Below, piece after piece: positions 1 through 54,035 of a stretch of 64,000 bases of DNA. Within the stretch, counting starts at the first letter, position 1, and every line of letters starts with the position of its first letter. The DNA comes from Cymbidium sinense (taxonomy: Eukaryota > Streptophyta > Magnoliopsida > Asparagales > Orchidaceae), in assembly GCA_021442155.1 (NCBI GenBank), contig CM038216.1, positions 157,279,983 through 157,343,982 on the forward strand. The letters run 5' to 3'. Below the pieces are notes generated by a model. The model had not been told where the DNA came from. It did not search any database and saw nothing but the letters and a program-made list of their open reading frames with translations. The position numbers and the translations under genes were made by a program.

Positions 1-1300
1 CTATTATGCAATTTAAACATAACATCAAGCATTTTATAAATCCAATGCAAAAGAATAAGAGGCTAGTGTGGTCGGGTGCTGCCGTCAACCACAAAAAAAT
101 AAATGTGTAGCTAATCTCTACCCTTATACAACTCAGTATATGAAAGAATAATTATAATTTATAAATGAATAAATGCTATGGGGGTCTTCCTATATTCAAT
201 TCATATCTCCTTCATTTCTTCATTTGGATTTGCTTGCTTCAAAGGCATCACAGGGCCTCCTATGACAAAGCCTTCTAGCCACTGCTCATCCTAATCCTTC
301 ATAACACTAATCCTAATTTCTAATGCAAAATTACTTTAAAAATAAGAAAAATAAATCTAACTATACCTGCAAAGAAAGTGTTAGCTAAACACACTACACA
401 ACCCAAGCAATTATATAAATAATTTGGACTTAGCACCCTGCACATGGGCAACCAAGCCCACCTATCCTAATTTAGATTATGCTCAGGGGTTAAGCAACCT
501 ACAAAAGAGAGCATTAATGATTATTTTAAGCACACCTTAAGCACAATCTCCTACAAAAAACATGATTAGGCTAATCACTATCTAACATCCAGTCTATGAA
601 TTATACACCCTAACATCTAGTCTACAACAATACATCATAAAACTAAACATAGATCACTTCAGGTACCACCCAAGTATAAAGCTAGGAGTGGTGACCTACT
701 TCTAAAGTGTGTGTATTAAGGCTTGTGTGGGCCTTAACTAGGCATTGTTATGATTTTAAGAATTAAATGATGTAATTTAAGAGGTTGATTTCATTTTAAG
801 TGGTTTAATTGATTTGGGAATTTTACTTAGCATTTTCTTTTGTTCCATTTGGCCTAAACTTAACAACTAAGTGTTATAAAGAGAAAAAAAAGAGGATCAC
901 TCTCTTTCATCCCTACCTTAAGTCACATCTAAAGCATATTAATTAACAAATTCTCTTTAGTGAATGGCTTATTACATATTTTAAATTAATCCTAAGTTTA
1001 GGTTTACTTTAAATAACCTCATTCAATAAGAAAGGCATCTTAAGATTAATTAGAATTAATTACTATCACATGACACATATTCATTCATTTCTTTCTATCA
1101 TATAAAACATGCACATGATTAAATCTTAAGCATACCTATACATGCAATATATTTTTAGTACACTTAAATGATCAAGGTAAACATGTATTTTAGAATTTAT
1201 TCCATTTGATTAAATTATTTTATCATATTAATTTAAAGTTCTACCAAAATTCTTATATAAAAATATATAAAAGTGAAATTAAACAGGCACATGTCATTGT

Positions 1301-1904
1301 TAACAAGGGAAGTAAGGTAATCAAATTGACCTCCTTGGGACTAACTAAAGCCTTGTATTTCCGGGATGTCCAAACTATATACCCATTACATTCAAACATA
1401 TGTAAATTTATACACATGAACATAAAAAAAGAAAGCTTTGAACCATGTGATCAATTGATTCAATCATTTGAACAATTTTGAATGCATGTCTTTCTTAGTA
1501 TAAAAAGGAGATTTTCATTCATTAGATAAATACACATTCAAATGAATAAAAGTTTTAAGCAGATACTTCATATTATTAAACCAAGGGAGTAAGATAAAGA
1601 CCTCCTTAGGGCTACTTAAATTCTTGGATCCCCAGAATGTCCAAAGTAGATATACCCACTACTCTTAAATACACATGAATGTATAAATAACTTCAAGAAT
1701 GGAAAAATTATACTAAAGTTATATATTTGAAATAAGTATGCATATGGAACAAAGACTTATCCAAATTCTAGTATTGAAGTATGTAAGAATGAAATCAAAT
1801 GAAGTATGTGCCGCTATTAAACCAGGGAAGTGAGGTAATTAAATGACCTCCTTGGGGCTATCTAAAGCCTCGTATTTCCGGGATGTCCAGGCTATATACC
1901 CATT
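1301..1904. repeat. Three spaced copies of an 85-90 bp motif inside LTR copy A
   Basis: Similar blocks lie at 1301-1387, 1574-1660 and 1815-1904. Each begins with a purine-rich word such as AAGGGAAGTAAGGTAA, passes through GACCTCCTT and ends with GGGATGTCCA or AGAATGTCCA followed by TATACCCA. Spacing is about 273 and 241 bp. LTR copies B (about 19910-19990) and C (about 34620-34695) carry the block only once, so copy number differs between LTR subfamilies. Confidence 0.7.
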
Positions 1905-4639
1905 AACATTCTTACTTGCATGAATGAAAGAAAAGAAACTTCACTCACACACTAAAATTATAATCACATAAATCTTCTATGTATTTATAACTAGCATTCA
2001 TAGCATATATAGTCATTCATTTATAAGTTTTGGAAAGTATATTTGGATTTAATAATGATAATAGCCACACATGTATTATTTTAGACCAACACATGCAAGC
2101 TTGATGTAAAGGAAACCATTTAATTTAATTAATTTTGCAAGAGATGAATGCATGAATCAAGTGACATACAACATTTGATATGATTGGAAAGGAATAAACG
2201 GACATAAGCACATGATTTTATTCAATCCAATTAACTCTTAAGGACAATCATATTAAATAAGCTCATTTAAAATAAACCAAAATTTCTTAAAGTCATTTTT
2301 AATCTCATCTTTGATTTGATTTGAGAGATCTGAAAAAGGTTTGTTAATCCTAATCCCATTCCCCATATTTGAGTTAATTTGATTTAATGAAAAGTAATTA
2401 TATTGATTTTATGGATTAATTAGGTTAATGTCAATTAAACCCTTATGTTACCTTAAGATAATTAATTAAATGATTATGAGCCAATGTAATATGCAAAAGA
2501 ATTGAAAACTAAATAGCAATGCTCTTATGAAATGAGAGGGGTCTAATGCAATTAGCTCACAATCATTAATTAATTAAGCTTAAGGAACTCTCTTAATTAC
2601 TTTTATGATTTTCTCACACATGTGCTAACCATAATTCCATTAGCTCTCTTTAGGTTATTGAACACCTAAAGCACGACCCATGGATTAATTAAGGAAAATC
2701 AGATGAAGTTACCCTTTTAATTAGGTTAACCAAGTCATTAATCCATTAATCCATTTCTCTTTACTTAATTACTGATTTAATCAATTATCCTTTGAAATGA
2801 AATGGGCATAAGGGAAAAAGATTGGGAAAGAGGTCTCAACCTAGTTACATAAGCCCCTCACTTAATCAAAAATGATTTGGTGTGATTTGAGTTTCAATTT
2901 TATTAATTAAGCAATTAATTAGTTAATTAATCCTTAATTAGCATTTTGGTTGAAAAAGATAAGGAAACTTAGGGGAAAGATTAGGAGGGAGGCCATAGTC
3001 CAACTCCCTAAGTCTCCCTACTATTAAGCAGTGATTAAGGGATCTAATTTGTTGATCAATTACTATTCACATATTTAATTATCACTTAATTAAGTTAAGA
3101 AGGTAATTAGAGCTTAAATAATCAATTTTCTTAATTAATCAACTAATAAATTCCAACCAAAATAGGGGAGGCAGAGGTCACCCCCCTCAACATCCTTAGA
3201 ATGTTTGAAAGTGATTGGTTAATTAATTACGGAGTAATTAGGCTAATTAAAATTTTGATTAAACCCTAATTAAGCTAAATTTATTCAAAATTAATTAAGA
3301 ATAATTTTAATGGATTCCCCTCTAAAATACCTTTAAAATGAGCCATTATTTATATATTTTGGATTTTTTTATAATTAGTTATGAATTATAGAAGTTTTAG
3401 CCTTAAAAATATATTAATTAGCCTTAGTTAAGCCTTGTGATTGTGCCACATGGCGTCGTGCACTTTTTTCACATGTGCAAGATTGGCTATTTGCATCTCA
3501 CATCTGATGATGGACGCATATGATCTCCATCATCCAATCTTAGATCGGATAGCTCAGATTGATCCCATCGTGTTAAGGGAGAAAATAGACAGATCTAGCG
3601 TGATTTGATCAAAGCCGTCCATTCTTATCACATGGAATAGACGGCCCATGATCCTCCTTCCCGTGAGCGATGAATGACGGAGGCCGTCCGCCATGGGTCA
3701 CTCGATCTGAGCTCACCCGAGCTCAGATAAACTTCAAAATCAACCCACACCATCAAGAAGGAAACTGCACACATCCAATGATCAAGTTTGACTCACATGC
3801 AAATTTTCTTCAGAAAGATCCAACCAAAATTTCTTATTTCTACAATTTTGAGGAATTATGTCTTCGAAACTTAAGACTGGTGGCATCGATGTATCTTATC
3901 CCTGATGACCACAGTGGCCAATTCTCCATAGTTCACTTCGTGGATCAACTTTCATCACTATGGAGCTTGGTGGTGATCAAAGTCCCTCCTCCAATGGCTT
4001 TCAAGCTTGGGAAATGACTTGGGTAGCTTCGAAGACATGCGTGGAAGGTGTGTGTAAGAGGAATTTGGTGGAGATGGAGTACTGGTAAAGTTAGGGTTAG
4101 GGTCTAGATTGGAGTGTCCTATTTTAGTTTTGCACGGAGATGAAAAATGCCATAGGATGGAAGCTTGGAATCACTCTAGGGATTGCAAAGAGGCTCGAAT
4201 TCACCCTTAGAAGCTCTGATGATTTGAATTGATGCATTTCCCATTCAAATTGAGGAGGAATACCCCTTGATTTGTTGAGGTGGATGAATGGGATAGCTAC
4301 CCATTTTTTTGGTCGACCAGTCACCATCAGAGCATTGGAGTGGTCTCAATCGAGTCCATGTGGCTTGTTTGGATTAGGAGAGCCAGGAGGCTCCAAGGTT
4401 GATTTGGCCATATTGTCTTTCCTTAATCCCTTAGATGATCGAATTGCATGGGAAGTGAGTTAACTCATCTCCCTTTGGTCCATGGCCAACCTAGCATGGG
4501 TTAAGCGGCTTAGGTGTCTTAAGTGATGCCTCATTTGGATGAGTGAGGATGCTAAGGTGAAATGAAGACTAGACATTGCCATATGAGGAAAGAATCCAAT
4601 GTGGGAGAGGATCCATGGAGGATTTGCATTGGACTTGGC

Positions 4640-5220
4640 TCTGAATAAGTTTGGCCTGATTTTAGGTTGACCCAAGATGGGTTTGGATCAGGTTTGGTCA
4701 ACCTCCAATGGGTCATGGGTTGGTTTATGGGTTTTAGCTTCATTTGGTCAAATGGGTTCATATTGGATTATGTTGGGTTGGGTTGACCAATTTGTCAAAT
4801 TGGGTCAAACTGAGGCTTGGGTTAGGTTAAAATGATGATTTGAAGAGTTTTGGCTCAAGTGGTTTCAATTAATTTGGCCTAGGTTTGATTTTGGCTCATT
4901 TGGAATCAAATGGGTCAAATGGGTCAAGTTGACTATTTCAACCAAAATAACCAAATTGACTTGGGTTGAGTGTTGGTTTAAGTTCAATTGGTTAATTAAA
5001 AATGATTGTGGGTTTTAGTTTGAATCAATTTGGATTTAATTTTGATTTTGGTCAATTTAACCTTTAGGTCAATTTGGGCTAGGTTGGCGTCAAGTTGACT
5101 AATTGATCAAATTGGGCTTAATTATGTCTTTGGTCAAGTTCAATAATCAATTTGGAATGAACTTAAGTCATTGGTTGCAATCAATTTGGGTTATATTGTG
5201 ATTTGACCCATTTTGACCTT
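4640..5220 (-). promoter_or_regulatory. W-box-rich segment of LTR copy A
   Basis: By eye this 0.58-kb stretch holds about 17 occurrences of TTGAC or its complement GTCAA, many as TTGACC/GGTCAA. TTGAC(C/T) is the core of the W-box bound by plant WRKY transcription factors. The same cluster occurs at the equivalent place in copies B and C. Binding is an inference; the motif density is what is seen. Confidence 0.45.
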
Positions 5221-5331
5221 TTAGGCAATGGGGTCACAAAGGATGTGATCCAAATAGAGTGCCCGTAGAGAATGGGGCTGCTAAGGGCTTTATCCAAAAC
5301 CTTGAGAAGATAATATCTATAAGTATTCGGT

Positions 5332-5933
5332 GGCCAACTCAAGGAGAAAGCACGGGGACTCACATCTGCCAAGAGTGGTGTATCCATCGGGTGAGTCATT
5401 GTCAGCATAGCGAACATCAACCAACCTAAGGTGCTCATTGGTTTGCAACATTTAGCTTAGGAAGAAAGCATCGGGGACTCATATCCTTCTATAATGAACT
5501 GATCACTGGGATAGTCTGTCTTCATTTCGATGGGTGTTTCGACCTCGTGGCATGAATGCCAGAGGGGACTTATATCAACTCAAGAGTAGTCAAGAGGAAA
5601 GGAGCCACTGGGGGACTTACCCTAAATCTCAAATATACTTGACCTAGTTAGCACATGATGACTAGTTCAAGAAAAAAGCATGTAGGCTTACATCCTCTTA
5701 GATAAAGTCAACATGAGGTAGACTATTGTTTGTGTAGTGAGGCCTGCCAAACTAACAAGGAGCTAATCGGTTTGTAATGGTTAGGTCAGGAAGAAAGTGT
5801 GAGGACTCACATCCACCAGACAAGTGACCACTAGGGTGACGTACTAATGAGGTAGCATGCCAGTTCGATCTAGAGTAGCTAATGAGTGAGTGCCACAGGG
5901 GGCTTACTCTCGCATCAAAATTGCTCGAGACAA
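5332..5933 (-). repeat. Degenerate tandem repeats, 3' region of Tat element 1 (family 1)
   Basis: Related blocks carrying AGAAAG followed by GGGGACTCACATC or variants recur near 5345, 5462, 5671 and 5791. Blocks with GCCACTGGGGGACTTA or GCCACAGGGGGCTTAC lie near 5603 and 5890. Longer matches (GGTTTGCAAC near 5440 and GGTTTGTAAT near 5769) suggest a higher-order period of about 0.3 kb. The array sits between the integrase end and the LTR, where Tat-lineage elements are known to carry variable tandem repeats. Confidence 0.6.
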
Positions 5934-5965
5934 AAGATATGTGTTTGTTGTTGTGTTTATGTTTG

Positions 5966-6246
5966 AGGGAATAGGATGTCGCTTGGGTTCTTTTACACCT
6001 ACCCTAAACATGTTGGGGAATTTGATGAAATGGTGCCATGAATGATAGTTGTGATCCCACCAAGAAATGATGCTGCTTGGGTTCTCTCACACCTAACTTA
6101 GTTGTGATAGTCGAAATAGGATGCCTCTTGGGTTCTCTCACACCTATTCTAGTATTGCTTAGGAATTTGCATTTAATTTATATTTGTGTTGTGAAAGAAG
6201 GGTAGGATGCCCTTGGGTTATCTCACACATATCCTAAACACATCGT
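5966..6246 (-). repeat. Four tandem copies of a second 3'-region repeat of Tat element 1
   Basis: Four related blocks start near 5966, 6064, 6118 and 6204. Each has GGATG, then CTTGGGTT, then CTCACACCTA (or a close variant), then CCTAAACA or a relative. Spacing is uneven (about 98, 54 and 86 bp), so the unit has suffered deletions. They lie directly downstream, in element sense, of the integrase remnant. Confidence 0.65.
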
Positions 6247-6359
6247 GGCGAATTCACAAGCAAGCAAATAATGCTTCGAAAGAAGAGAATATTTTGATGA
6301 ATTGGAATGAAATTTTTGATGATATAATTTTCAAAATATGGTTTTATGGGTAATATTTC

Positions 6360-7599: not shown

Positions 7600-8640
7600 T
7601 CCTTGTCCTTTTTGGCAATGGCAACATCCCCTTCAAGAGAAAGTCTCTCAATAAGTTCAACGTCAATAAGGGATAGGACTTGTCTATTTTGAACCCTTAT
7701 TGGAATGGACTCATCTTCTGAACAAGCCAATTTTTGGCAAGTTTGGCCAAAGCATCTGCTACTGCATTCTCTTCTCGAGGGACCTTGTAGATGGTGACTT
7801 TAGGGATTTGGGTCAACAGCTTCATGGTGTACTCATGGTAGTGACGAAGCTTACATTCTAGAACCTTATAGGACACAGCAATCTAGTTGATGACTAACTG
7901 AGAATCTCCATAGATGTTGATGCTCATGACACACACTATAATGGCTTACTTTAGACTGGCAATCAAAGCCTCATACTCAGCTTCATTGTTGGTGCATGGA
8001 TTGGAGAGATAGTATGATTATCTCATCACATCACAGTTTGGAGTTAAGAGAACTATCCCTGACCCTGGCATTTCTAGAAGAGTAGATCATGGTTCTTCTC
8101 ATTTTTGAATGAAAGTTGTACCATTAAAATACATCTCCCAATAGCAATTCTCAATGTCCCCTAAGTTCATGATTTGTTCATCAGGGAGATCATCACTAAG
8201 TGGAGAATCAATAGGAAGTGGTTATGCTACTAAGAAATCAGCTAGTGCTTATCCTTTCACCGCACAGAGGAGTACGAATGTGATATCAAACTGCAAAAGA
8301 ATCATGGAACAATATGCCAAATGTTCAAATAATGTTGGCCGTGTCATGAGATACTGCGGTGGATTGATTCTTGAAATCAAGTCCACCTTATGAGAAAGCA
8401 TGTAGTGTCATAGCTTTTGAGATGCGAAGATTAAAGCTAGGCAATGTTTCTCAATAGGTGAGTAGTTTGCTTCAGTAGGAATTAGATGATGGTTGAGGTA
8501 ATAGAGAGCATTCTTCTTCCCTTCATCATTAGCTTGGGCCAACAAAGCGCCAAGAGAGTCATCCAATGCAATAGTGTAGAGGATCAATGGCTTGCCTAGG
8601 ATAGGGGATGCTAGAACTGGTGCTTCACCAAATACTGGTT
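7600..8640 (-). pseudogene. RNase H and additional RNase H remnant of Tat element 1
   Basis: Reverse-transcriptase-associated RNase H removes the RNA strand of the RNA:DNA hybrid. Minus-strand reading gives the RT-linked RNase H first (about 8640-8300, including a YSPIEKHCLALIFA segment), then a linker with ALADFLVA near 8250. A second RNase H-like domain follows, with TNNEAEYEALIAS at about 8000-7960 and PREENAVADALAKLAK near 7785-7740. Possession of two such domains is characteristic of the Tat lineage (RH plus aRH). Several stop codons and shifts interrupt it. The domain order and the conserved NNEAEYEAL and ADALAKLA words make the assignment firm although the gene is dead. Confidence 0.82.
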
Positions 8641-9600
8641 GATGTCTTCAAAGCATACTGGCACTTGTCATCCCACTTGAACTTGGCATCCTTCTTAATA
8701 AGTGCTGGAAATGGCTTGCATCTCCCTAATATATTTAAGATAAAGAGCCTTAGATATGCCAACCGCACTTGGAATGATCTGAGTTGGGTTAGACATTTAG
8801 GGGGTGACATTTCTAAGATATCTTTAATCTTTTTCGGGTCTATTTATATTCCCCGGTGCCGGACAACTAACCCAAGGAACTTCCCTGAAGCTACTATGAA
8901 TGCACACTTCAGGGGGTTTATTTTGAGGTTGAATTGCCTTAACCATTCAAAAATTACTCTCAAGTCAAAGAATGGTCTACTTTTTCTTTACTTTTGACTA
9001 CTAGATCATCAACATAGCATTCAACTTGATGATGAATGAGTTCATTGAAGATTTGAGTCATGGCCCGTTTGTATGTAGCACCAGTATTTTTAAGGCCGAA
9101 AGGCATGACCTTATAACAATAGATTTCAATCGAGGTTCAAAAGTAGTGTTTCTTTCATCCTCGTGGCCATCTTGATTTAGTTATAGCCAAATGACCCATC
9201 CATAAAAGAGAATATTGCATGAGATGAGGTGATGTCCACCATTAATTCTAGTATAGGAAGTGAAAATTCATCCGTAGGACATGCCTTATTTAAGTCCTTG
9301 AAATCGATGCATATGAAAATTTGGTCATTCTTCTTCTTAACTGGCACAACACTGGCTAACTTGGTAGGGTATTTTTCTTCCCTGATAAAACTAACATTGA
9401 TCAATTTCTTGACCTCAGAAATGACATGTTGTTCAATTTCAAATCGCATGCGTCTAGGAGCTTGCTTGATAGGGTTATCATTAAGGTCTATTGCTAGTTT
9501 GTGGGATGTTACGTCGGGAGATAATATGGGCATCACTTTATAACACCATGCAAAGTAGCCCTTAAACTTAGTCAATAGGCTAATTAAGTCATTGGTTTCT
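8640..9600 (-). pseudogene. Reverse transcriptase remnant of Tat element 1
   Basis: The enzyme copies element RNA into DNA. The longest open piece, 9575-9177 on the minus strand, reads YFAWCYKVMP near its start, then RRMRFEIEQH, FIREEKYPT, VPVKKKNDQ, DFKDLNKACP and SFMDGSFGYN, all recognisable RT palm and fingers blocks of Ty3/Gypsy type. Further on, after frame changes, the catalytic box reads YVDD at 9016-9005, apparently intact. The thumb continues at about 8950-8630 with LKINPLKCAF and SGKFLGL, then PPKCLTQLRSF. Internal stops, for example near 8990 and 8860, make it nonfunctional. It sits between protease and RNase H as expected. Confidence 0.88.
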
Positions 9601-11499: not shown

Positions 11500-13600
11500 A
11501 GTGACACAAATATGTAATTCAAACTAGCTTTATTCCTTGATTTCTTGGATTTAGAAGGAGGCACATAGTAGAAATCTAGTAAAGTAAGTGGGGTGAGGGA
11601 TTTGATTCTATCATTCACTGATACAATATGTCTACTAGAAGAAGAGCTAGCTAAAGAAGAAGTGTCGACTAAAGTAGCAGCTACAACGATGGAATAGAGG
11701 CTGGGCTCGGTGGTTCTACTTGGCTATCCAGTATGGCCGCCGCTACTATTGAGCTCACTTTCCCAAGTTGTCATGACAACTTGAAACCTTCCTTGATGTT
11801 GAGAGCTACCTCGTGCACCAAAAGGAAAGTTTCTTGATTTTTGATACAATCTTTTTAGAGGTTCGGGATAAGGAGATATCCCAACCTTCTTTGGTTTTGA
11901 GAGATCACATGTATTCCCAAGGATTGCTCTAACGGAACTGGATGGTTGTTCCACTAGGTATTCCTTCGGGATAACTATAGTGCCTGTCTTGTAGCTATGT
12001 CCAAGCCAGTCTTTGAATGTAAATCAATCCTCCAAAATATGTCCTAGTATGCGGTGGTAGGGGCAAAAGTTAGGATCATTGCTCTTGCCCACTTCCTCCA
12101 GCTTCCTAGGTTTGGGTAGAAAATCATGTTGCTTTAAGAGGTTCTTAAAGATTTTCTTGATTACCTCCCTCTTAAATGAATAAGTTTTTTTAGTTTATCC
12201 AAAAGAGTAGGTTGATGGTAGCTACCAGATGGCGGGTATGTGTGCCAATGCTGTGAGTATGGCTGAGGAGGAGGATGTGAATGGGGCTATGGAGGTGATA
12301 GGGATGGCCTAGAGGAGAGGTGGAAGTGATGGTTATGGAGCACGAGATCTCTCATACTACTCTCTAATCGGTTGCTTCCCCTTGTCCAATGCTACTACTG
12401 CCACTAGCTTCTTCTTATAGGCCTTTGTTTCTTTGGCTTTGATGGTTGGCCTTGAAAAGGGAACTGTTTGGCCTCTCCTTGTAGACTAGCTGCCTTGTTG
12501 ATTAGCTTCTTAAATGTCTTGATGGTAAAACCTTTGAGCATGAAGGTGACTGGTCCATGAATATTCGTTAGTAGAATTTCAATGGCATGATGTTCAAACA
12601 ATTGTGGTTCATATTTCATACTCAAATTCTGCCATCTAAGAATATAATCAACTAGGGACTCATTGGGGTGTTATTATACTATAACGAGATCACCCATAGT
12701 CACCCTTTATTGAGCTCCAGCAAACCTCTTAATGAAGAGTTGCTCCAACTCATCAAAAGTCTTCACTGAACTGTTGGGGAGTTCAGCATACCAATCAAAG
12801 GCTATACCTGCTAAACTGCTGATAAAAAGATAGAATAGTAATGCATCGCTGCCACCAATGTTGTAACAGTTGGCCCTGAAATGCGTTATGTGACGGTGTG
12901 GGTTCCCGCTGCCATCAAAGCACTTGAAAGAAGGAAGCAAAAAATCCTTAGGATATTAGATAGCATCAAATTCCTTTGAGTAGGGTCTATCCTTTAGAAC
13001 TGATGATCTGCCTCAGGCTTGTATCAATGCTTCTCTCACCTGCTGCTCAACCATGAGTTTAATATCTTTTCTTGTACGGAGGTACTATCCACTACCTTCC
13101 TATACAAGCTAGTGCTACCCTGCTCCACTGGAGGTGAAGTCTTGGCTTAATCTAAGACATGCAACAACTCGAGCTGAATGGTCTCTATAATAGTAAGATG
13201 CACTACTGGGGCTTGATTCTAAAGTGTCAAAGCTGCTACTAGTAAATCTTCAAGCCTCTTTTCCATTTTGTCAATTTGTTCATCCTTCTGTTTAAGTTAT
13301 TGAAGGAGGTGTTGGGTTGAGTAGGTTGTATCATCTTGCTTGGTCGCAATACCTTCCAAGCTCTACTGATCCCTAACGAGGGAACCCCTAGTGTCAACCA
13401 TATGCACCTCTACTAATTCCTCTAGCATATCATCTTCATTAGGATCAAAGCTAAACTTCTCTTTTCTATGTCAGACCAAGCATACCCTAGAATCTCCTCC
13501 TTCTCCATGAGATACTGTGCTACAATATCATCTAGGGAGCGGTCCAACTAAGCAAGCATAAATGATCATGGCTGACCAGTGGCGGGATCATTGTCATGAA
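11500..13600 (-). pseudogene. Gag remnant of Tat element 1
   Basis: Gag forms the virus-like particle. In element sense it begins with a coiled-coil-like stretch at about 13330-13230 (LKQKDEQIDKMEKRLEDLL). The capsid-type block follows at 12940-12707, with FDGSGNPHRHITHF, then GIAFDWYAELPNSS and FDELEQLFIKRFA, which is the standard retrotransposon gag pattern. 12625-12404 continues the domain. A zinc-binding relic lies near 12075-12005 (FCPYHRILGH, then FKDWL). An expected later cysteine codon there appears as TGA. The tail runs to about 11720 (RAILGNTCDLSKPKKVG). Frame breaks separate all pieces, so the gene is inactive. Confidence 0.82.
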
Positions 13601-13699: not shown

Positions 13700-15025
13700 A
13701 GTGGTACTCCTGAGAGGATATATAGTTATAGGGACAATGGTACTATCTTCCTAACCCTCTGCTTCTACGATCTCCATGGTCTGTGGTGGTGGTGGTGATG
13801 GCACAACTACAATACTTTGAGGTCGCCATTCCCTCTTCACTGAAATTGGAGCAGGAGGTCGAGTAGGAGAGCTTGGCCTTGCCTCAGGTGGTGTAGATGA
13901 AATGAGATCTCTTGGACATAACTGGATCACTAGTGGAGTTTTTTTTCCCAATATGTTGCCTTCATGGCCTTTGACAGAACTGTGGAAGATAGAACTTGTA
14001 CTAGAGATGGACTTGGAGTAAAGTGATGTGGTCGAGGCACCACCGACTCTCTTGATGCAGGAGCTCTCCTCCCATGGTGGGTAGTACCCGTTAGTAGAAT
14101 GTTATCAGTATGACCGGCACAAGTAACATGCTAATCGAGAAAATTGATAAAGGCTGAGGCCGCTGACTACCTGGTGTACCTGCCTTTCTCTACTAGTGAC
14201 ATGCACTGATACCGGGCTTCTCTAGCCCTCTCCTATAGGATGTGCTCACCAACTCTGCGAGGAATAACCGACTGTAAATCAAATTGGGTCTCGGACTCTG
14301 ATCATCCCTAAACCTCACCTACTCAGCATAGAACTGACCTAAGGCCAGCATATGACCTCCTTCTATCTCTGGTAGGAGCCTCATACTGTACTGTAGGTGG
14401 AGGTGGCACTGTAAACCTCCTAACATCTTCCTCTCCATCAGATCTAGAGAGAGGATGGAACTTGTTCTATGTGATCAGAGGAGAAACAATCCTGGGTGAC
14501 TCCTCCACTATAAACTGGGAAACTACCTCCAACTCCTTGGTTATGCACTCATCATGACACTTGATCTTGTGCCATCAATTACGACTAGTCTGGGAGAGGA
14601 GCGAAGACATATCTCAAAGGTTGGGAGACTACCCAAAGGGGATAGCCTTTTTGAAGGAGCTAGTGGCTGGTACGGGCAAGAAAGCACAACAACGAATGGA
14701 ACTAACTCGAATTATTGGGAACTACCACAACCTTCCTCTTTAGTGAGGGAACTAAATCAGATGGCATCTCAACATGAATGACTAGCTTATGCCCAATCAC
14801 CACACTCCTGCTAACAGTTATGAGGGTTGCCCCCTCACAAGTGATCCTGGCCCCTTCGAATCCTCGACCAAAGTGAATGAGATGGGCAAAGTCGGTATGT
14901 GGGAGGCTAGATTGATCCAAGCCCAAATCCATCCTAAAAGGGAAAGTGCAGACAAACTTCTGAGAGTCCATAACACTAAACTGAACTAAGTAGAAACTGA
15001 CTGAAACTGAGTTGAAATTTTGCAA
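13700..15025 (-). pseudogene. ORF1-like segment upstream of gag in Tat element 1
   Basis: Two open pieces lie between the leader and gag. The first, 15025-14702, has an in-frame ATG at 14971 (context TGTTATGGA) that starts MDSQKFVCTFPF and continues with a mixed hydrophobic sequence. The second, 13951-13751, is proline-rich (ISSTPPEARPSSPTRPPAP). I recognise no domain. Tat relatives such as Ogre carry an extra ORF in this position, so an upstream ORF or an extended gag N-terminus is plausible. The 14971 ATG is preferred because it has a G at +4 and follows the leader directly. Plus-strand frames at 14554-14989 overlap it and are probably shadows, though I cannot exclude them. Confidence 0.35.
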
Positions 15026-15101
15026 TTTGTGAAAACAAACTCTAATAAGATTTATTCTCTTATATTTTGCTTAACTTTAGAATTTTTATTTAGAATTTGA
15101 A

Positions 15102-16677
15102 CCCACACTCAACAATTTGAATATGTTAAGTGGGGCTCCTTGAATTTAGAAGAGATATTTTTGAAGGAGAAATTTTTTGAGTTTAGAATCCATTTTCAAC
15201 AAATTTGTGTATGTTGAAAATGGGCTCAATTATTTTGAAGAAATTTTTTATGCTTCCATTGGTTCATATTTGAATTTGACTTTTATGTTTGAGGACCCTT
15301 TATTTAACAAATTTGAGTATGTTAAATAAATGGTCAATTGATTTTTTTTTATTTGGAATTTTGGGATTTACTCACCTAGCAAATTTGGGTATGCTAGATG
15401 AGATGTTTGAAAATAATTTTCTTCTTTTGCTTATTTGCTTGTGATGTGAATCATGTGTGAATTTGGAAATAAAATCTTTACTGAGCAAATTTATATGCTA
15501 AATGAAGTCCAAATCAAATTTGATTTTGATTTTAAAAATGGGATCTTTACTTAGTAAATTTGGCTATACTAAATAAAGCCTCAAATGTGTTTGGTTTTTG
15601 TTTTGATTTTTGAAAAGAGGGCCTACTTAGCAAATTTGTGTATGCTAAAGAAAGAATCAAATGTGCTTTGCTTTGTATTTTATTTGAAAAGAGGATCTTT
15701 ACTTAGCAAATTTGTGTATGCTAAATAAAATCCATGTGTTTTGTTTTTGTTTTTGATTTGAAAAGAGGATCTTCTCTTAGCAAATTTAGGTATACTAAAT
15801 AAAGAATCCGAATGTGTTTGATTTTTGTGATTTTGAAAGGAGAATCTTTACTTAGCATATTTGGGTATGCTAAATAAAGAATCCAAATGTGTTTAATTTT
15901 TGTGTTTGATTTCTAAAAAGTGGATCTTTACCTAGAAAATTTGTGTATGCTAAATAAGAGATCCAAATGTGTTTGATTTTTGAAAAGAGGAGCTTCCATT
16001 TAGCAAATGTGGTATGTTAAATAGAATCCAATTTATTTTTCTTTTTGAAAAGTGAAACTATCATTTGACAAATTTGAGTATGACAAATAGAATTCCAATG
16101 TATTTTGATTTTTTTTATGATTTTTGCAAAGTAGATTTCCATTTAACAAATTTAGGTATTTAAAATGGAAGTCAATTTTGTTTCATGTTTCAAAGATGAA
16201 GTCTTTGTGTGATTTATTGCTTTTTAAAAAGATGGAAAATCACACTTAACACACATAGAATGTGTTGAGTGGAGTTTCAAATGGTGTGATTTTGTTTGAA
16301 GACAAAGCCTCCATTCAATAAGTTTGGGTATATTGAATGAAGAGGCTTCTCTTCAAGTTTGTAATTTTGAAAGGGGAGAAACTCTAACTTCAACATATGT
16401 AAGATATATTAAAATAGAGTTTCAATTTTATGATTTGATTTCATTTGGGGATGAAATCTTCATTCAATAAATTTGGGTGTATTGAATGAGGATGTTCATT
16501 TTTAAATATGTGATTTTTGAAAAGATGGTTTTAATTTTATTTTGGAAATGAAATCTTCATTCAATAAATTTGGGTATATTGAAATGAGGATGTTCATTTG
16601 TGATTTTTGAAAGATGATTTTGGTTTAATTTGGAATGAAATATTCATTCAATAAATTTAGGTATATTGAATGAGGAT
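15102..16677 (-). repeat. Tandem array of about 20 hairpin units in the leader of Tat element 1
   Basis: About 20 units spaced roughly 70-110 bp apart each contain an inverted repeat of 8-14 bp around a conserved 10-base loop, AATTTGNGTA on the plus strand (TACNCAAATT in element sense). Examples: CCATTTTCAACA with TGTTGAAAATGG (15190-15223); TTTATTTAACA with TGTTAAATAAA (15299-15330); CTCACCTAGCA with TGCTAGATGAG (15371-15402); CTTTACTTAGTA with TACTAAATAAAG (15545-15578); CTTTACTTAGCA with TGCTAAATAAAG (15846-15879); CATTCAATA with TATTGAATG (16312-16339 and 16461-16488). Arms differ between units but stay complementary within a unit. Spacers carry T-rich text such as AAATGTGTTTGATTTTTG. In element sense the array lies between the PBS and the first ATG, in the untranslated leader. 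Confidence 0.85.
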
Positions 16678-17186
16678 GTTTATAAGTGCCTTTTTTTCTT
16701 TTTTATTTTCTTTTTTTTTTGTGAAAGGATGTTTTTGATTTTTTATTGGAAAGATCCTACTACATAACAATCTCGAAGATTGTTAGAAGAGGTTAAGTTA
16801 TATGTGTTTTGTGAAACTTTTTATGCAAATATTTTTATTATGTCAATTTTGGAAAAGTGCTTTTGAAAAGCTATATTTTATATGGGATTTATTTTTCTTT
16901 TGTTTTTAGAATGGACTTTACCTTATAATGGAGATGGTAAGAAAAAGGTCTTTAGTTATCTCTATTTTTTTATTAAATTTTATTTTCACCTATTGGGAGA
17001 CCCAATAGGGTTTTAAGACCCACCTGGAGTGAGGTCATAAAACCTAAAGGATGTTGGCTAGCTTAGCTTAAGAATGAAATAAACTAAGTGCCAACATAAA
17101 GAATGATAGCCTTGGATTCATATGAAATACAAACCCACTATTGATACTTGGAGATAATGATCATTTACCAAAGATGGAGAGAGGAA
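16678..17186 (-). other. PBS-proximal leader of Tat element 1, with two perfect hairpins
   Basis: This T-rich leader segment has no gene. It holds two perfect stem-loops outside the main array. One is TAACAATCT and AGATTGTTA around CGA (16765-16785). The other is CCTATTGGG and CCCAATAGG around AGA (16989-17009). Their loops are unlike the array loop. A run of T and TTTTC words fills 16689-16722. Confidence 0.6.
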
Positions 17187-17207
17187 CCTTCCTCAGCAGA
17201 GTTGCCA
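17187..17207 (-). other. Primer binding site region of Tat element 1
   Basis: In element sense the LTR ends CACCCACA. Eight bases follow, then TGGCAACTCTGCTGAGGA. A TGG-starting sequence a few bases inside the 5' LTR is the standard position for the tRNA primer site, and many Tat elements have a similar TGGCGACTCTGCTGGGGA-type string here. I cannot assign the tRNA with certainty. This site fixes the element orientation as minus. Confidence 0.65.
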
Positions 17208-20200
17208 AAAGAATCTGTGGGTGTTTTATTTTATTTTCATCTTCATCTATGAGGTAAATGAAAATAAAAATAAAATACTTTATTTGTTGGACACCACGTA
17301 GATCTGTATATGTTCTTATTAGGGTGATTGAGTACAACATCAAGGAATGATGTACTATCTTGAGAGATAGAAGTCACCACTCTACAATGGACCTAATCAC
17401 CTAATAAGGACTCCTAAGTACAATGGGTCTTTGAATGTGTCAGAGATTCTTCCCCTACTTTACATGGAAAGTAAAGTAGGGTTTATTTTAAATTAGTTTG
17501 TTAAGTTCCCTATGGAGGCAAGCCCCCATAATTAATTACATCCTAAGGAATGAGATTCCTTAAGAATACTCTCAATTAAGGTGAATGATCATTGTCTCCC
17601 ATGATTTCAAATATAGGACTATGAATCAATTAATTATTTTTAGAAAAATCAATTGGGATTGTTTAAAAGGAGGAGTTATTTTTAGAACCAAAGGGAGATG
17701 AGTAGGGGATACTCATTATACTAAAAAGCCTAGTGAACATCCCAAACTATCCTATGATTGGGCTTTATACTTTTGAAGTTGAGGAGATTTATTTGTTTGA
17801 GTTGAATATTTATTAGAAATCTAGGAACACAATGTCATGTAAATGCCTAAGAGATTAGGATTTATGCTTGTAGCCTGTAAAGGGAAGAAGCAACCTTAGA
17901 TCCTAAATCTATGGAGCCTTGGAGAGGGTTAGATCTTGACCTAAATCTAAGGCAAAATGGGTATATGGTTTACCTCCACAAGAAAGGATAAAGCACCCGA
18001 CTGTTGGACTTACAACCGCCTAGAGGTGGCTGCCATCTAACTCCATCTATGATTTTAAATACATGTAGGCAAGTCTTATGCTTTTGAAAGATAGGTAAGT
18101 TGTTGTTTATTTAGAAAGAAGACTAATTCCTTAAACACACTCCCTAAGAGACTAGATCATGAAGGGAATGAGTAATGACTTAATCTAATGAAAGTTTTTG
18201 TTAAGTTTTATTTTGATTTTGGATAATTTATTTGACACAGACTATGAGATTCATATGCCTAATGCAGAAATTATCAGCCAAAAGGAAGGTGTATTTTCTC
18301 GGCAAAGGTGGAAGCCCTCCATAAGCAAGAGTGAAGCAAGATGATTTTATGCATGAGGTGAAACATACAACATCCATCTAAGGGGTGGTTAAATCTTTTA
18401 TTATCTTGATTTATGTCCTCGACTTTAGGTAAGGTTATGAGTTATTTAATTTTAATTTTTAGTTGATTAATTGGATAGAAAATTTATTTTTTCTAAGAGC
18501 CTAATCGCATCCAGGCCATTCATCAAATAATAAAGAAACTAGAAAAAAATATGCCAATATAATGCACAAGCTAAACAAACATCAAACAATTTTATAAAGC
18601 TAGCACAAAAGAACAAAAGGCCTTTGTAATCGGGCTCCATCGCACAAACTCAAAAAGAAATTAGTAGCTGAGCTCTTCTTTATACAACCCAGATTACAAA
18701 TGAAAAACTACAACTTAGAAAGAATTTATGTTATGGGAGTCTTCATTCTTCTTTGTTCATTTGTTCATTTCTTTCTTTCCTTCTTTTCTTTCCTTCTTTT
18801 TTTTCTTTCCTTCTTTTGGTTGGTTGGGATGTAGTTTGCTCCAAGGCTTCACATGGTGCATAAGACTTACTCATATGATCAATGTTCATCCTAATTCCCC
18901 ATAACTTCATTCCAAATTATAATTGCAAAATTACATGAAATGGGAAAAGTAAATTTAACTAAAACCTAAAAAAATAGAGGTTAACTAAACATACCACACA
19001 ACCCAAGCATGTATATGAATAATTTGGACTTAGCACTCACACATGGATAACCAAGTCTATCTGTCCTAATTTGGATTATTCTTAGTATAAGCAACCTGCA
19101 CAGCAAAAATATTTATATTTTTATTGCAACACCCCTTAAGCACAATCCCCTACAGAAGACATGATTAGGCTAAGATCTCCGTACCATCTAGTCTATGCAC
19201 ATACACCCTAACATCCAATTTAAAACATTACATCACAAAATAAAACCATGCATTTACCTTAACATAGAGCGAGAAATGGTGTATTAGTTTAATGTGTGTG
19301 CCATTTAAGGCTTGTGTGGCATGTCTTAGCTAGGCTTTAAGGTTGGAATTTTCTAAGTGTGCGAGAGATTCAACTTAGGATGGTGGTTTTAGTTTAAGTG
19401 GTTTAGTCAATTTATCAATTTTATTTGATGCTTTGATTTAGTTTGAATGAACCTACACTTAGTTATAAGAAAGAGAAGAAAAGAGAAAGAACTTATCTTT
19501 CATCCCTACCTTAAGTAATTTCTAAGGTAGATTCATTAGTGATTTTTCTTTAGTGAATATTTTATTATGTGTTTTAATTACCTAAGTTTAGATTTACTCT
19601 AAGTAGCCCTATTCAAATAAGAAAGGCATCTTAGGATTAATTAAGTTGAATTACTATCACATAACACACATTCATTTATTTCTTTCCAACATGTATACCA
19701 TGCATACGAATGATCCTAAGCATACTTATACATTTAATGCAAAAACTTTAGCACACTTTGATGATGAATGCTAAGAGATGTTGCTTCAAGAAAATTTGAA
19801 GATTCAAGGATGCATGATTTTGTTAAGTAGAAAAGAAGGGCTCTTTTATCCATTAATCAAATGCACATTTACATGTTTAAAAGACATAAGAGAGTATGCC
19901 ATTATTTTCTACACCAGGAGTGTAAGGTACAAGACCTACTTAGGGATACTTAAAGCCTTGCAACCCCGGGATGTCCAGACTAATATAGCACTTTTATTAA
20001 ATACATGTGCATGTACAAAGAAATAAATGAATGAAGAATCATGCAAAAGATTTTTGTTTTTGAGTTTGTTATGCAATTTATATGTGTAGATGTGAAGATC
20101 CTTCTTAAGTCATAACATAGAAGTGTATAGGAATGGATTTAAGCAAGTGTTATGTTCTTTTCAAATGAACTATACACTTTGCAAATCCTATCCAAATCCG

Positions 20201-22463
20201 TGTTAAGAGAAGAGAAGGAAAATCACATGAAGCACATCTTATATTATAATCACATGCAAACTTATAAGTACTTATAAGTAGCATACCTTCATTTATAATT
20301 TGATTTGTAAGTTTTGAAAATAATTTTTGATTTAATAGTGATAATATCCACTCATATTCTTATTTTAGCCAAAACATGCAATTTGACATAAAGGAAACAT
20401 TTTATTTGATTAATTTTCCAAAAGAGATGAATGCATGATTTCATATGGAAAACAATCATTTAGCATGCTTGGAAAGAAATAAATTGATGTAAGCATATAA
20501 TTTCATTCACCCTAATTAATTCCTAAGGACAATCCTATAAGATAAGATTATTCAAAGTGAATCAAAATTGCTTAAAGAAACTTTTATTTTGGTTTTGAAT
20601 TTGATTTGAAAATGATTTGTGAGAAATGGTTTGCTGGTCTTAAACCATTTCCCCATATGTGAATCAATTTAGTTTAATTTTAGAACAATTTGATTCATTT
20701 TTATGTTTTTTTTAGGTTAAGGTGTGAATTAAATTCATTAATTACCCCTTTCCTATACCACTTTAACATAATTAACCAAATAATTATGAGCCAACATATG
20801 ATATGCAACCACATGGAATTTAAATGAGCAATGCACCTAAGAAAGAAGGGGGCTTAATGCAATTGGCTCATAATTATTGATTAATTAAGCTAAAGGGTTT
20901 TCATTAAGTGCTTTCATAACCTCCTCACACATGTGAGTTGGATTATGATTTCCTTAAGCTTACCTTAGGCTTTTGAACACCTAAGGATCTACCCAGCAAG
21001 AGAATGATTAAGTTTCTGGATTAATTTTTAGTTTTGAGTTGGGTTAATTAAGCTATTTAATGAAGTGATTAAATCATTCATCAATTTACAAATTAATTAA
21101 GTCTTCATTCAAATGAAATAGACTTAGGGAAAAAGATTTGGAAAAGGAATCCTAATCTCATTCCCTAAGTCTATCCACTATTCCAAGGTGATTAATAAGC
21201 TTAATTAATAAATTTATCACCATTTAATAGATTAATTAATCATTTAATTGATTAAAGGAGTGATTAGAGATGAAATAAGTAATTACCTAAATTAATCCAA
21301 ATAATAATTCCAAGAAAATCATGGGAGGCAAAAGTCATCCCACTGGTTAACCCTTGGGAGTTTAGAATTAAATACTAAAGTAATTAAAGGGTAATCAATA
21401 TAATTACATCCCCAATAAAACCAAATTGAGTGAAGGTTACTCTTCAAAATCAATTAAACTTAATTTTATATTATTCCCCTTTGAATTATCTTTAAAATGA
21501 ACTTGAGTTTCAGTTTTTGGACTTTTCTACATTTAGTTATGAATTTATGAAGTTTATTTGATTAATAGGTAATTAAATAACCTAATTATATAACTAATCA
21601 TGTTGGCGCCATGTGGGCTGCTGATGCTACACGTGCTTTCCACATGGCATGAAAAATTTGTTATTTAAGTTATCACATCACGCACCACGTCAGCTGGCAG
21701 TGCAACATGCTTTCCCCTAGGCCATTAGATCAAGGATTGGATGGTCAAGATTAAACCCACAGTTATAAAGGGATTAATTAGTGGATCTAACATGTTTTAA
21801 TCAGGGTCATCCATCCAAAACATGTGGGATGGATGACCCATGATTCATCTCTGCCTTTGCTTGCGGGAGATGGAGACCTTCCACCCTCCATGGCTTGATC
21901 TAAGCTCACATGAGTTAGAATTTGCTAAGATTCAACCCACACCATCTAGAAATATAGGGAAGAATATCCAACGGTTGAATTTTAATCGGCTGACAATTCC
22001 CTTCACAAAGGACCAAGCAATTTTTAAATTAAGGTCGATTTTGAGTCATACCTCGCTGGAGGTTATCACCGCAGCTTCCAACGGTGGAGGTAGCTTCGTC
22101 CAGTGGAGATGAAGTCCTGTTGAAAGTTTTAAGGTTTAATTTAAAGTGGATCTCCTAATTGGACAAGCTCCCCTTCAATGGCTTGCGACTTTGATCGAAG
22201 TGAGGCTTCCCATGGCTTGGTGACTTGGGAAAAGCTTTGGGTGAGCTTGCTCCCGTGATGGTGTTTTCAAAGTGAATTGGATTTGATTGAGGATTGATCG
22301 AGTTGGAATCTCTTCCCACCTCCCCTATTTCAGCTATGTAGAAAATTGAGAGAGGGAAATTGGAGAGAGCTTGGAAATGCTTAGGGAACTTTGTGAATGC
22401 TTGCTTTCGATCCTCTAAGCTCAATCAAATGCAAGAGTGTTGGTTTGAGTGGAAATGAGGGGG

Positions 22464-22474
22464 AGTATATATCC
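22464..22474 (-). promoter_or_regulatory. Candidate TATA box of LTR copy B
   Basis: On the minus strand the sequence reads GGGGATATATACTCCCCC, a TATATA core inside a GC-rich frame in otherwise AT-rich DNA. Copy C has the related GGAGATATACTCCCC at about 37131-37144. Downstream in element sense is pyrimidine-rich, leader-like sequence; upstream lies the W-box cluster. If real, U3 is about 2.3 kb and R-U5 about 5.2 kb. No transcript evidence is available. Confidence 0.35.
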
Positions 22475-22776
22475 CCTTACTTGGATCAGACAGCCAAAGC
22501 TTATTCTTCCATTTTTGATCAGTTACTCTAATTGAATGGGTTATTTAGGCTGTTAGGGATCTCATATGCTTCTATTTTGGCAAAGGAGTGGAATGGTCGA
22601 GGTGCACATGTGTTAAATGAGTGTGGGAGGTGATCCATGTAGAGAAATTCCATTGGGTAGGGCAGTTTTGGCCTTGGGTTGGGTTTGGTTGAGCCAAACC
22701 CATTAGGTCATGTGCACTACCTCCCTTGTATAAATGGTCCACTAGGAGGATGCCAAGGGGCCATCAAAAGGAATTG

Positions 22777-23893
22777 ACCAAATTCCAAGTGGATTTGGCC
22801 ATAGGTTACCCTTTAACCTAGGGGTAAAATGATCATTTGGCCTCAATTTTGATTTAGACATATTTGAAATGATTGAAAAATGGTTGTGCTATTTTTTAAT
22901 GAATTTGGAGTTGATTTGATATGCTTTGGCTCAAGTTGACCCATTTATGTCAAAATGGGTCAACCAAATTGGGTCAAACTAAGGTTAGCTTAAGTTCATA
23001 TGACCATTTGAAATGTTTTTACATCATTAGTTTGGTTCAATTTAATTTATATTTGGTTTTTGTTCAATTGAGTTTATTTAGGTCAAATTAGTCAAGTTGA
23101 CCAATTTAACTCATTTGACCCAATTAGATTAGGTCATGGGTTCATTTAAGTTTTGTTGATCATTTAAAATGTATTGCAAGCTTTAGTTTCAATCAATTTT
23201 GGTTTAGTTTGATTTCAAGTTAATTTAACCATTTAGGTCAAGTTGGGTTCATGGTCAATTGGGCTAGGTTGGGTCTAGTTGGCCAATTAAGATTTTGGTC
23301 AAGTTCAACAATCACTTTAGAATGAATTTGACCCATTGATTGCAATCAATTTGGCTTAGATCAAAATTTGACCCATTTTGGCCTTTATAAGTCAAGTTGG
23401 GTCAACTTGAGTCAAGTAGCCAATTGGACTAGGTTTAGCTCAATTGATGGCTTGATCATGTTCAATCATTGATAATGGATTGATTTAGATCAGTGGTTTC
23501 AATCAATTTGGCCTATAATGAATTTTGGCTAGTTTGGGTTTCATTTTGGTTAAGTGTTGACTTGGTCAATAGCTAGGTTTGACTTGGTTTGACCCAATTT
23601 GGATGATTGATTATCCCATGATGATTGTTGAGGCTTAGGTGGGATTAGTTCAATCTAATTTGGGTTGGATTAGAATTTGTCTCAAAAAGGTACTTTAGGT
23701 CACTTTGGGTTAAGTGAGCCTAAATAAGTCAATTGATCAAGGCTTGATTCAAGTTTGGTTTAACTCACATATAGACTTATGATTGAGATATAAATCTCAT
23801 TGCAAGTGATTTGGAGTCAAATGGGTTTTGGTTCATTTGATAATTTCAAGTCAAAAGCGTGATCATGGGTTTGACTTGGGTTGGTTTGACTTT
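22777..23893 (-). promoter_or_regulatory. Dense W-box cluster in LTR copy B
   Basis: By eye about 26 TTGAC/GTCAA cores lie in 1.1 kb, against about 2-3 expected from base composition (36 percent GC assumed). Examples are near 22950, 23090-23125, 23240, 23295 and 23395-23425. The cluster ends about 300 bp before the candidate TATA box in element sense. WRKY factors bind TTGAC(C/T), so an enhancer role is possible, though degenerate local duplication could also create the density. Confidence 0.5.
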
Positions 23894-24799
23894 GGATTTG
23901 GTGATTGAAGTTTGTGTTTATATTTGGATTCATTGAAAGATTGATTGAATCATGAAGAAAATCCAAGGGTTTGGATTTATTTGGGTTTGATTTGGCTAAG
24001 TTAAAGAATTTTGACTTGAAAGGATATAGGTTGGATTTAAATTAGATTGGGGTTGTGTTTTGAATTTGGTTTGGTTATTTGAATTTATATTTCATTTATA
24101 TTTGTGAATATAAATGAGAATATAAATGGATTATGAGAAAATCTTTTGAGTTTGAAGTGATTTGGATTTGGCTTGGCTAAGTCCATAAGATAAAATCAAA
24201 AGGGCTTAGGGAAGACTTTGGATTTGGAATTGAGTTTTGAATTTAGTTTTGGTTGTTTGAATTTATATTTCACTTATATTTATGAATATAAATGAGAATA
24301 TAAAATGGGTTATGAGAAAATCCTTTGAATTTGGAGTGATTTGGATTTGATTTGGCTAAGTCCATAAGATGAAATCAAATGGGCTTAGGAAAGATTTTGG
24401 GTTTGGAATTTATCATGGATTTCAATCATTTTGAATTGATTCATGATTTGGATTTTGGAATTGATTCAAATTTGAGAAAATCAATTAAGTTGAAATTGAT
24501 TTAAAATTTGATTTGGAATTGATTTGAGTTTGAAGTTGGTTTGAATTTGAAGTTAGACTTGAAAGAAGGATGTAAGGATTTGGTTCAAGCTATAGGGTAG
24601 GCAAGTCATCCTAATACCCCTAAGGCATAACCTATTCCTATGGCTAACTCTTCTAAGTCTCTAGGGTTAGGTCAAGTGTTCACCTAATCACTATAAGTGT
24701 CTTAAGACTAAGGAACTCTTAGCATCTAGAGGAGTCCTATGTCTAAGATGGAGAAGTTGAGAGCTCACTCCAAAAGTGAGGTCAACAATAATCCAACAA

Positions 24800-30768: not shown

Positions 30769-30771
30769 TTT

Positions 30772-43375: not shown

Positions 43376-43425
43376 TCATATCCTTTATTATTTTCACTTA
43401 ATTTTCTCCTCTCACATTTTCCTTT

Positions 43426-53982: not shown

Positions 53983-54035
53983 ACTACTTAGTAAGTAAAG
54001 AGACCAAGCTTGGCAAGTCTAATGCTCGGCCATCC

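What the first reader, a model, noticed from the sequence alone, without database searches (positions are those of the whole stretch)
15102..16677. Array of about 20 hairpins with covarying stems and a conserved loop in a Tat retrotransposon leader
Seen directly: units of roughly 75-100 bp each hold an inverted repeat around AATTTGNGTA. The stem sequence changes from unit to unit (inner arms TCAACA, TTAACA, CTAGCA, TTAGTA, TTAGCA, TTCAATA), yet the opposite arm changes to match (TGTTGA, TGTTAA, TGCTAG, TACTAA, TGCTAA, TATTGAA). Matched change on both arms with a fixed loop is the usual mark of selected structure. In element sense the array fills the untranslated leader between PBS and the first ATG. 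Inferred roles: RNA packaging or dimerisation (CAAATTTG in stem-loop junctions is self-complementary), leader shunting in translation, or binding of a Gag or host protein to the loop. Tandem repeats in Tat untranslated regions are known; I know of no covarying hairpin array of this kind.
Basis: partly seen in the sequence, partly recalled or inferred. Interest (0 to 1): 0.88.

Follow-up and report, generated by a model that had tools for sequence, protein, structure and literature searches.

The report
Hairpin array in plant retrotransposon leader
A large family of old plant retrotransposons carries, at the start of its RNA, a row of about ten to thirty small hairpins whose stems change in step while their loops stay fixed, which points to a functional RNA structure of a kind I did not find described.

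Summary
[quoted passage not shown] Stems covary; the loop is TACNCAAATT.

The array is not private to this copy. It is in the 30 fetched family-A loci (the window's copy included), in the 30 fetched loci of the ~70%-identical neighbour B (B included), and in 8 of 10 leaders taken by PBS alone. Loops and inner stems are more conserved than spacers. Pairing-preserving double changes in inner stems exceed tree-based nulls in aggregate (0 of 400, 0 of 400, 0 of 200 simulations). Predicted folding favours the sense strand in all 68 distinct arrays tested, and in neither array-less leader.

Against: a generic R-scape-like test found no individually significant pair. Outer pairs gave no orthologue signal. 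G-U is not clearly favoured over A-C inside the array. One PBS-matched leader lacks the array.

Best reading: a sense-strand, multivalent RNA element, most likely for packaging or dimerisation. The function is inferred, not shown.

The parts
15093..16690 (-). array of 20 hairpin units (U1 16663 to U20 15123, loop starts in sense)
   Evidence: fold z about -9
16640..16677 (-). U1, first hairpin of the array (stem CATTCAATA/TATTGAATG)
15101..15137 (-). U20, last hairpin of the array (9-nt loop)
16765..16785 (-). hairpin upstream of the array shared with element B (TAACAATC/GATTGTTA here; TAACAATT/AATTGTTA in B)
16916..16947 (-). shared hairpin CCTTACCA/TGGTAAGG, decayed in this copy
16990..17008 (-). 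hairpin CTATTGGG/CCCAATAG; absent from element B
17009..17044 (-). hairpin GGTTTTA.../...TAAAACC
17106..17141 (-). shared hairpin near the PBS; its inner stem has G-U 36 and A-C 0 over 11 leaders (structure found by RNAalifold)
17190..17208 (-). primer binding site (TTGGCAACTCTGCTGAGGA; tRNA-Arg label recalled)
   Evidence: 936 exact TTGGCGACTCYRCTGGGGA sites in the genome, backward control 0
17216..24790 (-). 5' LTR of the element, about 7.6 kb (5' end approximate)
   Evidence: 80% identity over about 7.4 kb with the LTR at 31955-39592
14702..15070 (-). first open frame after the array (ATG at 14971), no Pfam match
12707..12955 (-). gag piece (PF03732, E 7e-4, under the curated cut-off)
8960..9136 (-). 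reverse transcriptase piece (PF00078)
8408..8647 (-). RNase H piece (PF17919)
7697..7882 (-). second RNase H piece (RVT_3, PF13456, E 2e-4, 21.7 bits against a cut-off of 21.6), the Tat hallmark
1..6300 (-). LTR of the neighbouring, more diverged element B, whose PBS and own hairpin array lie beyond the window (L031); upper end approximate

Best explanation
The leader RNA of this Tat retrotransposon family is a cis-acting RNA structure: several single hairpins next to the PBS, then an array of about 10-30 short hairpins presenting the same loop (UAnnnAAAUU). Shown by comparison: the hairpins exist in diverged subfamilies, their loops and inner stems are more conserved than the spacers, inner pairing survives changes of sequence, and the predicted structure is stronger on the element's sense strand. 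Inferred: the repeated loop is a multivalent contact site in the full-length RNA. Most likely it serves to gather and package that RNA, either because Gag binds the row of loops or because the self-complementary AAAUUU at the 3' side of each loop lets hairpins of two RNAs kiss. Unit number drifts by tandem duplication and loss, which a multivalent site tolerates. My estimates: sense-strand RNA function of some kind about 0.75; packaging or dimerisation in particular about 0.4.
For: Leaders sampled by PBS alone: 8 of 10 have the array; one of the other two sits against what I read as antisense pol sequence, a probable nested insertion. The first 620 nt of eleven representative leaders are 67-88% identical to each other. 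Covariation with tree-based nulls: 123 units chosen by loop only, inner 12 pairs, paired 0.725 against 0.479, double changes 0.124 against 0.042, 0 of 400 simulations; 53 units of the PBS sample, inner 12, double changes 0.093 against 0.040, 0 of 400; orthologues within family A, inner 10 pairs, 0.0097 against 0.0046, above all 200. Twelve units of element B alone, not used to build the structure: 82.7% paired against 74.9% shuffled and 32-44% slid. Constraint: mean pairwise difference in inner stem 0.076, loop 0.089, outer stem 0.129, spacer 0.187; loop positions 6-8 (AAA) 0.009-0.025. Strand: sense folds better than antisense in 31 of 31, 30 of 30 and 8 of 8 leaders with arrays (68 distinct, since L041 repeats L031), and in 0 of 2 leaders without one. 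PBS-side hairpins: alifold -44.3 sense, -27.3 antisense, column-shuffled -3.9 +/- 3.0.
Against: No individually significant covarying pair in the generic G-test. Outer pairs showed no excess between orthologues (z about 0), and over all 252 pairs the double changes did not exceed every simulation (0.0071, maximum 0.0078). Inside the array the G-U over A-C excess is mostly one inherited T-G at pair 7: among minor states shared by at least 3 copies A-C 15 and G-U 8, and in the PBS sample inner 10 pairs G-U 43 and A-C 38. In 21 leaders, mostly family A, the covariation term of RNAalifold for the PBS-side part was slightly unfavourable, and a symmetric hairpin search there gave shared minor states G-U 7 and A-C 9. 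L078 has a matching PBS-proximal stretch but no array. Nothing links the loop to Gag. The coding frames I looked at (window, L031) are broken, and no RNA, protein or particle data were available.
Confidence: 0.4

Rival explanations
1. Translation control: the hairpins are unwound or skipped by ribosomes (shunting) to reach the first ORF over a 2.2-kb leader.
For: Position directly upstream of the first ORF and 24 ATGs in the leader.
Against: The ATG count is near that expected from base composition (28.5). Known shunts use one large stem with a short upstream ORF (recalled). A fixed loop in every unit is not needed for shunting.
Confidence: 0.15
2. Binding array for a host factor, for example for RNA export, stability or silencing evasion, or a source of small RNAs.
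For: Conserved loop in the fetched copies, variable number of units, sense-strand folding.
Against: Stems of 10-16 bp with mismatches are short for Dicer substrates (recalled). No small-RNA or binding data were available here. Rfam gave no match in the array; the only hit up to E = 1 was a microRNA family at 17230-17272, far under its cut-off (24.7 against 70 bits).
Confidence: 0.2
3. No selection: tandem duplication spreads hairpin units, and template switching between arms during replication or reverse transcription keeps the arms complementary.
For: Template switching can create and repair hairpins (PMC8794818, abstract read). Units are tandem repeats with differing numbers between copies. 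No single pair passed the generic covariation test.
Against: It does not by itself explain why loop and inner stem are more conserved than spacers, nor the sense-strand bias. Intermediate G-U and A-C states segregate at compensated pairs, whereas templated repair would tend to give perfect arms.
Confidence: 0.15
4. DNA-level palindromes that bind a regulator, like the repeated palindromic motifs of Sirevirus LTRs.
For: Palindromic repeat clusters exist in another plant retrotransposon group (PMC2829016, passages read). Array A-C states are about as frequent as G-U.
Against: Arms change sequence while staying complementary, which a sequence-reading DNA protein would not need. The loop is not symmetric. 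The sense strand folds better in all 68 distinct arrays tested.
Confidence: 0.1

Closest known systems
Structured retroviral 5' leaders (packaging signal and dimerisation hairpins; general knowledge, listings)
   Same: Hairpins between PBS and first ORF on the genomic RNA strand, including palindromic loop sequence
   Different: Known leaders have a few unlike hairpins; here one kind of hairpin is repeated about 10-30 times with a fixed loop. No packaging function shown.
Hypervariable tandem repeats in Tat/Ogre elements (PMC7004042, passages read; Macas 2009, cited there only)
   Same: Tat lineage, tandem repeats in an untranslated region, copy number varies between copies
   Different: Those lie downstream of gag-pol and vary in sequence and monomer length; this array is in the 5' leader and keeps its loop and pairing across subfamilies.
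Sirevirus repeated palindromic motifs (PMC2829016, passages read)
   Same: Many palindromic motif copies in non-coding parts of a plant LTR retrotransposon
   Different: Ty1/copia group, CGG-CCG core, in LTRs and before env, proposed as regulatory boxes; not covarying hairpins
gypsy 5' untranslated Su(Hw) site array (recalled, not looked up)
   Same: Repeated protein-binding sites in a Ty3/gypsy leader
   Different: DNA sites that act as an insulator, not hairpins

Membership tests
Tat lineage of Ty3/gypsy | additional RNase H (aRH) domain in the polyprotein (PMC6317226) | tested here: met
   RVT_3 piece 7697-7882 besides the RNase H piece 8408-8647; score only just above the cut-off
Ogre/Retand type of Tat | aRH between RH and INT (PMC6317226) | tested here: inconclusive
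   aRH lies downstream of RT and RH; the pieces I take for INT gave no Pfam hit, so the INT side is not shown
Tat lineage of Ty3/gypsy | tRNA-primed PBS next to the 5' LTR | tested here: inconclusive
   Shared TTGGCGACTCYRCTGGGGA-like site next to the LTR end; not compared with tRNA genes, the tRNA-Arg label is recalled
Tat 3' UTR hypervariable tandem repeats | located downstream of gag-pol | tested here: not met
   Array lies between PBS and first ORF
Tat 3' UTR hypervariable tandem repeats | repeat sequence varies freely between families | tested here: not met
   Loop and pairing kept in 8 of 10 PBS-sampled leaders whose PBS-side parts are 67-88% identical
Retroviral-type packaging or dimerisation leader | conserved RNA secondary structure on the genomic strand between PBS and first ORF | tested here: met
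   predicted and comparative only:
Retroviral-type packaging or dimerisation leader | binds Gag or dimerises RNA | not testable with these tools
   needs RNA and protein work
Sirevirus repeated motif | CGG-CCG palindromic core in a Ty1/copia element | tested here: not met
   second RNase H typical of Ty3/gypsy Tat; loop and stem sequences differ
Rfam RNA families | match to a curated covariance model | tested here: not met
   window 14900-17300: no hit in the array up to E = 1; one sub-threshold microRNA hit at 17230-17272

The most novel reading that the evidence does not exclude
A new kind of cis-acting RNA: a multivalent array of like hairpins, conserved in loop and pairing but free in stem sequence and unit number, by which a plant retrotransposon family gathers, dimerises or packages its genomic RNA through many weak identical contacts instead of one packaging signal.
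Probability: 0.3. Interest if true: 0.85.

Novelty: new variant of a known kind. Interest (0 to 1): 0.7.

Why it matters
How plant LTR retrotransposons choose and package their RNA is, to my knowledge, little known. This family has a leader whose structure can be read from sequence alone and tested with short non-coding RNA fragments. If the array is a multivalent packaging or dimerisation site it would be a different solution from the retroviral packaging signal. Natural variation in unit number (6-30 among the 30 family-A copies by the strict finder) would make dosage testable.

Tried and rejected
Tried with no or contrary result. (1) Strand test by G-U against A-C pairs in the array: 14 to 2 in the window's inner 8 pairs, but 23 to 20 when stems were extended; over family A, majority states of the inner 8 pairs 6 to 1 but shared minor states of the inner 10 pairs 8 to 15; PBS sample inner 8 pairs 32 to 15, inner 10 pairs 43 to 38. 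I do not use it for the array. For PBS-side hairpins it is 144 to 17 summed over the RNAalifold helices, a program that itself favours G-U, but 16 to 10 (majority) and 7 to 9 (shared minor) in a symmetric search of element B, several of whose nine hairpins are not shared. (2) Generic R-scape-like G-test with 60 simulations: 0 of 741 column pairs significant, although 5 of 16 stem pairs are in the top 25. (3) A mate for the 5' LTR: the 70%-identical LTR at the window's left end belongs to element B. (4) Exact pattern scans of viral and prokaryote collections gave 1 and 8 hits, with no model match better than E 0.24, taken as chance. (5) A self-complementary loop palindrome in U4 and U6 as support for kissing: rejected, since those stems simply run into the loop. 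(6) Pfam on the first ORF: nothing. (7) First unit finder picked up spacers; its counts were not used. (8) RNAalifold on 21 PBS-side leaders, mostly family A: covariation term +1.0 in -24.3, that is no gain.

Rows dropped before counts: the window copy from the orthologue test because the structure came from it; PBS-side alignments held 24 of 31 leaders in which a PBS was found with up to 6 mismatches, and L002, L009 and L012 were then left out; reciprocal-best filtering left 11-30 copies per unit and 14 of 20 units were used; 123 of 622 loop-selected sites were kept as non-redundant; 9- and 11-nt loops were left out of the PBS-sample test, 53 of 69 sites used. The 12 units of element B are those I picked from the hits.

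Full report
What is there. The window lies on a contig of a 3.53-Gb genome. The minus strand holds an old Tat-type LTR retrotransposon: 5' LTR of about 7.6 kb ending near 17216 (80% identical over about 7.4 kb to another LTR at 31955-39592), PBS at 17190-17208, a 2.2-kb leader, a first ORF from 14971 without Pfam match, gag, RT, RNase H and a second RNase H. Its frames are broken by many stops. Named relatives of an RT piece are plant proteins (Ananas, Dendrobium, Aristolochia and others), except the best hit, a 506-base contig filed under Klebsiella pneumoniae that I take for contamination.

The observation. Twenty hairpins fill 15093-16690. The inner stem changes from unit to unit (CATTCAATA/TATTGAATG, TTTAGCA/TGCTAAG, TTTAACA/TGTTAAA, TTTTCAACA/TGTTGAAAA and others) while the loop stays TACNCAAATT or close to it. 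Outer stems also match in some units with unlike sequence, for example U5 AAGCCTC/GAGGCTT. Folding is far better than in shuffles. In a scan of 799 windows over 64 kb, of the eight stretches compared, the array folded best on the minus strand (mean -9.0 kcal/mol relative to shuffles over 20 windows, against -5.0 on the plus strand). On 14 gap-free units 12 of 14 pairs show a double change.

Not private to this copy. A DNA search of the own genome gave 13,205 first-look candidates, of which 40 were scored. The 30 loci fetched (L001 is the window's own copy) all hold the array: 6-30 units by a strict finder; the median is 18 over 31 leaders, with element B (L031) lowest at 4 because of its 9-nt loops. 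A covariance model gave 800 hits at E <= 0.1 in the window plus 29 loci, both strands counted, so some hairpins count twice. The neighbouring element B, about 70% identical, has its own PBS and array just outside the window. A search with its leader gave 8,813 candidates, 40 scored; the 30 loci fetched (L041 is element B itself) carry 9-23 units by a looser finder run over the whole locus. Because these searches used the array as query, I also took ten places by PBS alone, the first ten in the listing: 8 of 10 have the array. Of the two without, L079 has what I read as antisense pol sequence right after the PBS, probably a nested insertion (no call annotated it), and L078 matches the other leaders only in its first 94 bases.

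Is it selected? Four lines. First, constraint: among orthologous units of family A, pairwise difference is 0.076 in inner stems, 0.089 in loops, 0.129 in outer stems and 0.187 in spacers; variants shared by at least 3 copies occur in 11%, 12%, 23% and 34% of columns. A second alignment of 23 copies agrees (0.053 loop, 0.092 stem, 0.139 spacer). Copies were found by similarity to the array, so comparison with coding sequence is biased and not used. Second, covariation with tree-based nulls that keep each column's number of changes. In 123 non-redundant units chosen by loop motif only, inner 12 pairs: paired 0.725 against 0.479, covariation 0.339 against 0.154, double changes 0.124 against 0.042, each 0 of 400 simulations. 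In 53 units of the PBS sample, double changes 0.093 against 0.040, 0 of 400. In family-A orthologues, inner 10 pairs, z 2.8-3.5, with double changes and paired fraction above all 200 simulations but the covariation score not; the outer pairs show nothing. Twelve units of element B behave the same against shuffled and slid controls. Third, strand: sense folds better in 31 of 31, 30 of 30 and 8 of 8 leaders with arrays (68 distinct; for the PBS sample the whole 1.7-kb stretch was folded), and in neither of the two leaders without one; stretches downstream of the arrays show no difference (-1.1 and -1.0). Copies are related, so these are not independent trials. Fourth, PBS-side hairpins: in eleven leaders (8 PBS-sampled, element B and two family-A copies) at 67-88% identity the alignment folds at -44.3 sense, -27.3 antisense and -3.9 +/- 3.0 when columns are shuffled. 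Several helices have pairs with double changes, and one of 11 pairs has G-U 36 and A-C 0.

Results against. A generic G-statistic with the same kind of null gave no significant pair. G-U is not favoured over A-C inside the array once all stems and shared variants are counted, and the fold asymmetry there rests partly on an inherited T-G at pair 7. For the PBS side, an alignment of 21 leaders mostly of family A gave no covariation gain, and a symmetric hairpin search gave no G-U excess among shared minor states. Rfam knows nothing here: one sub-threshold microRNA hit outside the array.

How it may work. Loop positions 6-8 are nearly invariant (diversity 0.009-0.025), positions 1, 2, 9 and 10 are low (0.037-0.074) and 3-5 vary (0.15-0.20) (9 orthologue groups). 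Thus each hairpin offers UAnnnAAAUU on a stem whose exact sequence matters less. AAAUUU, reaching one base into the stem, is self-complementary. A row of equal contact sites whose number drifts suits a multivalent RNA-protein or RNA-RNA contact. Given its place after the PBS in full-length RNA, packaging or dimerisation by the element's own machinery is my first choice (0.4), a host factor second, translation third. None was tested.

Comparison. Tat tandem repeats described in the papers seen lie in 3' untranslated regions and are hypervariable (PMC7004042, passages); expanded non-coding regions with tandem repeats are noted for non-chromoviruses in general (PMC6317226, passages). Sirevirus palindromic motifs are boxes in LTRs and before env (PMC2829016, passages). 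Template switching can maintain hairpins (PMC8794818, abstract) but does not predict loop constraint. Searches of the held library matched 504, 121, 14, 1,016, 1 and 34 papers, of which 20, 20, 14, 15, 1 and 12 were listed; no listed title or abstract start describes a covarying hairpin array in a retrotransposon leader. Subscription papers are mostly not held.

Noticed in passing
window 31920-39592: A second copy of the 7.6-kb LTR (80% identical), apparently a solo LTR, lies inside another plus-strand gypsy-like element with LTRs at 30409-30769 and 43016-43376 (93.6% identical).
   Followed up: partly
window 1-24790 and L031: Element A runs straight into the LTR of the more diverged element B without a 3' LTR of its own being recognised, suggesting recombination or insertion at the junction.
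   Followed up: partly
window 24053-24410 and 38689-39064: Both LTR copies carry a tandem repeat of about 180 bp near their 5' ends; the LTRs as a whole also fold somewhat better than shuffles on both strands.
   Followed up: no
window 54033-54262: An inverted repeat of about 230 bp (88% identity) that folds very strongly on both strands, possibly a hairpin element.
   Followed up: no
window 17227-17277: A near-palindrome at the end of the 5' LTR (51 bases, 78% self-complementary), where Rfam gives a sub-threshold microRNA hit.
   Followed up: no
L031 (sense 2968-3050): An AT dinucleotide run interrupts the leader of element B.
   Followed up: no
L078: A leader with a similar PBS-proximal stretch of about 90 bases but no hairpin array and no sense-strand advantage in folding; may be a subfamily that lost or never had the array.
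   Followed up: partly
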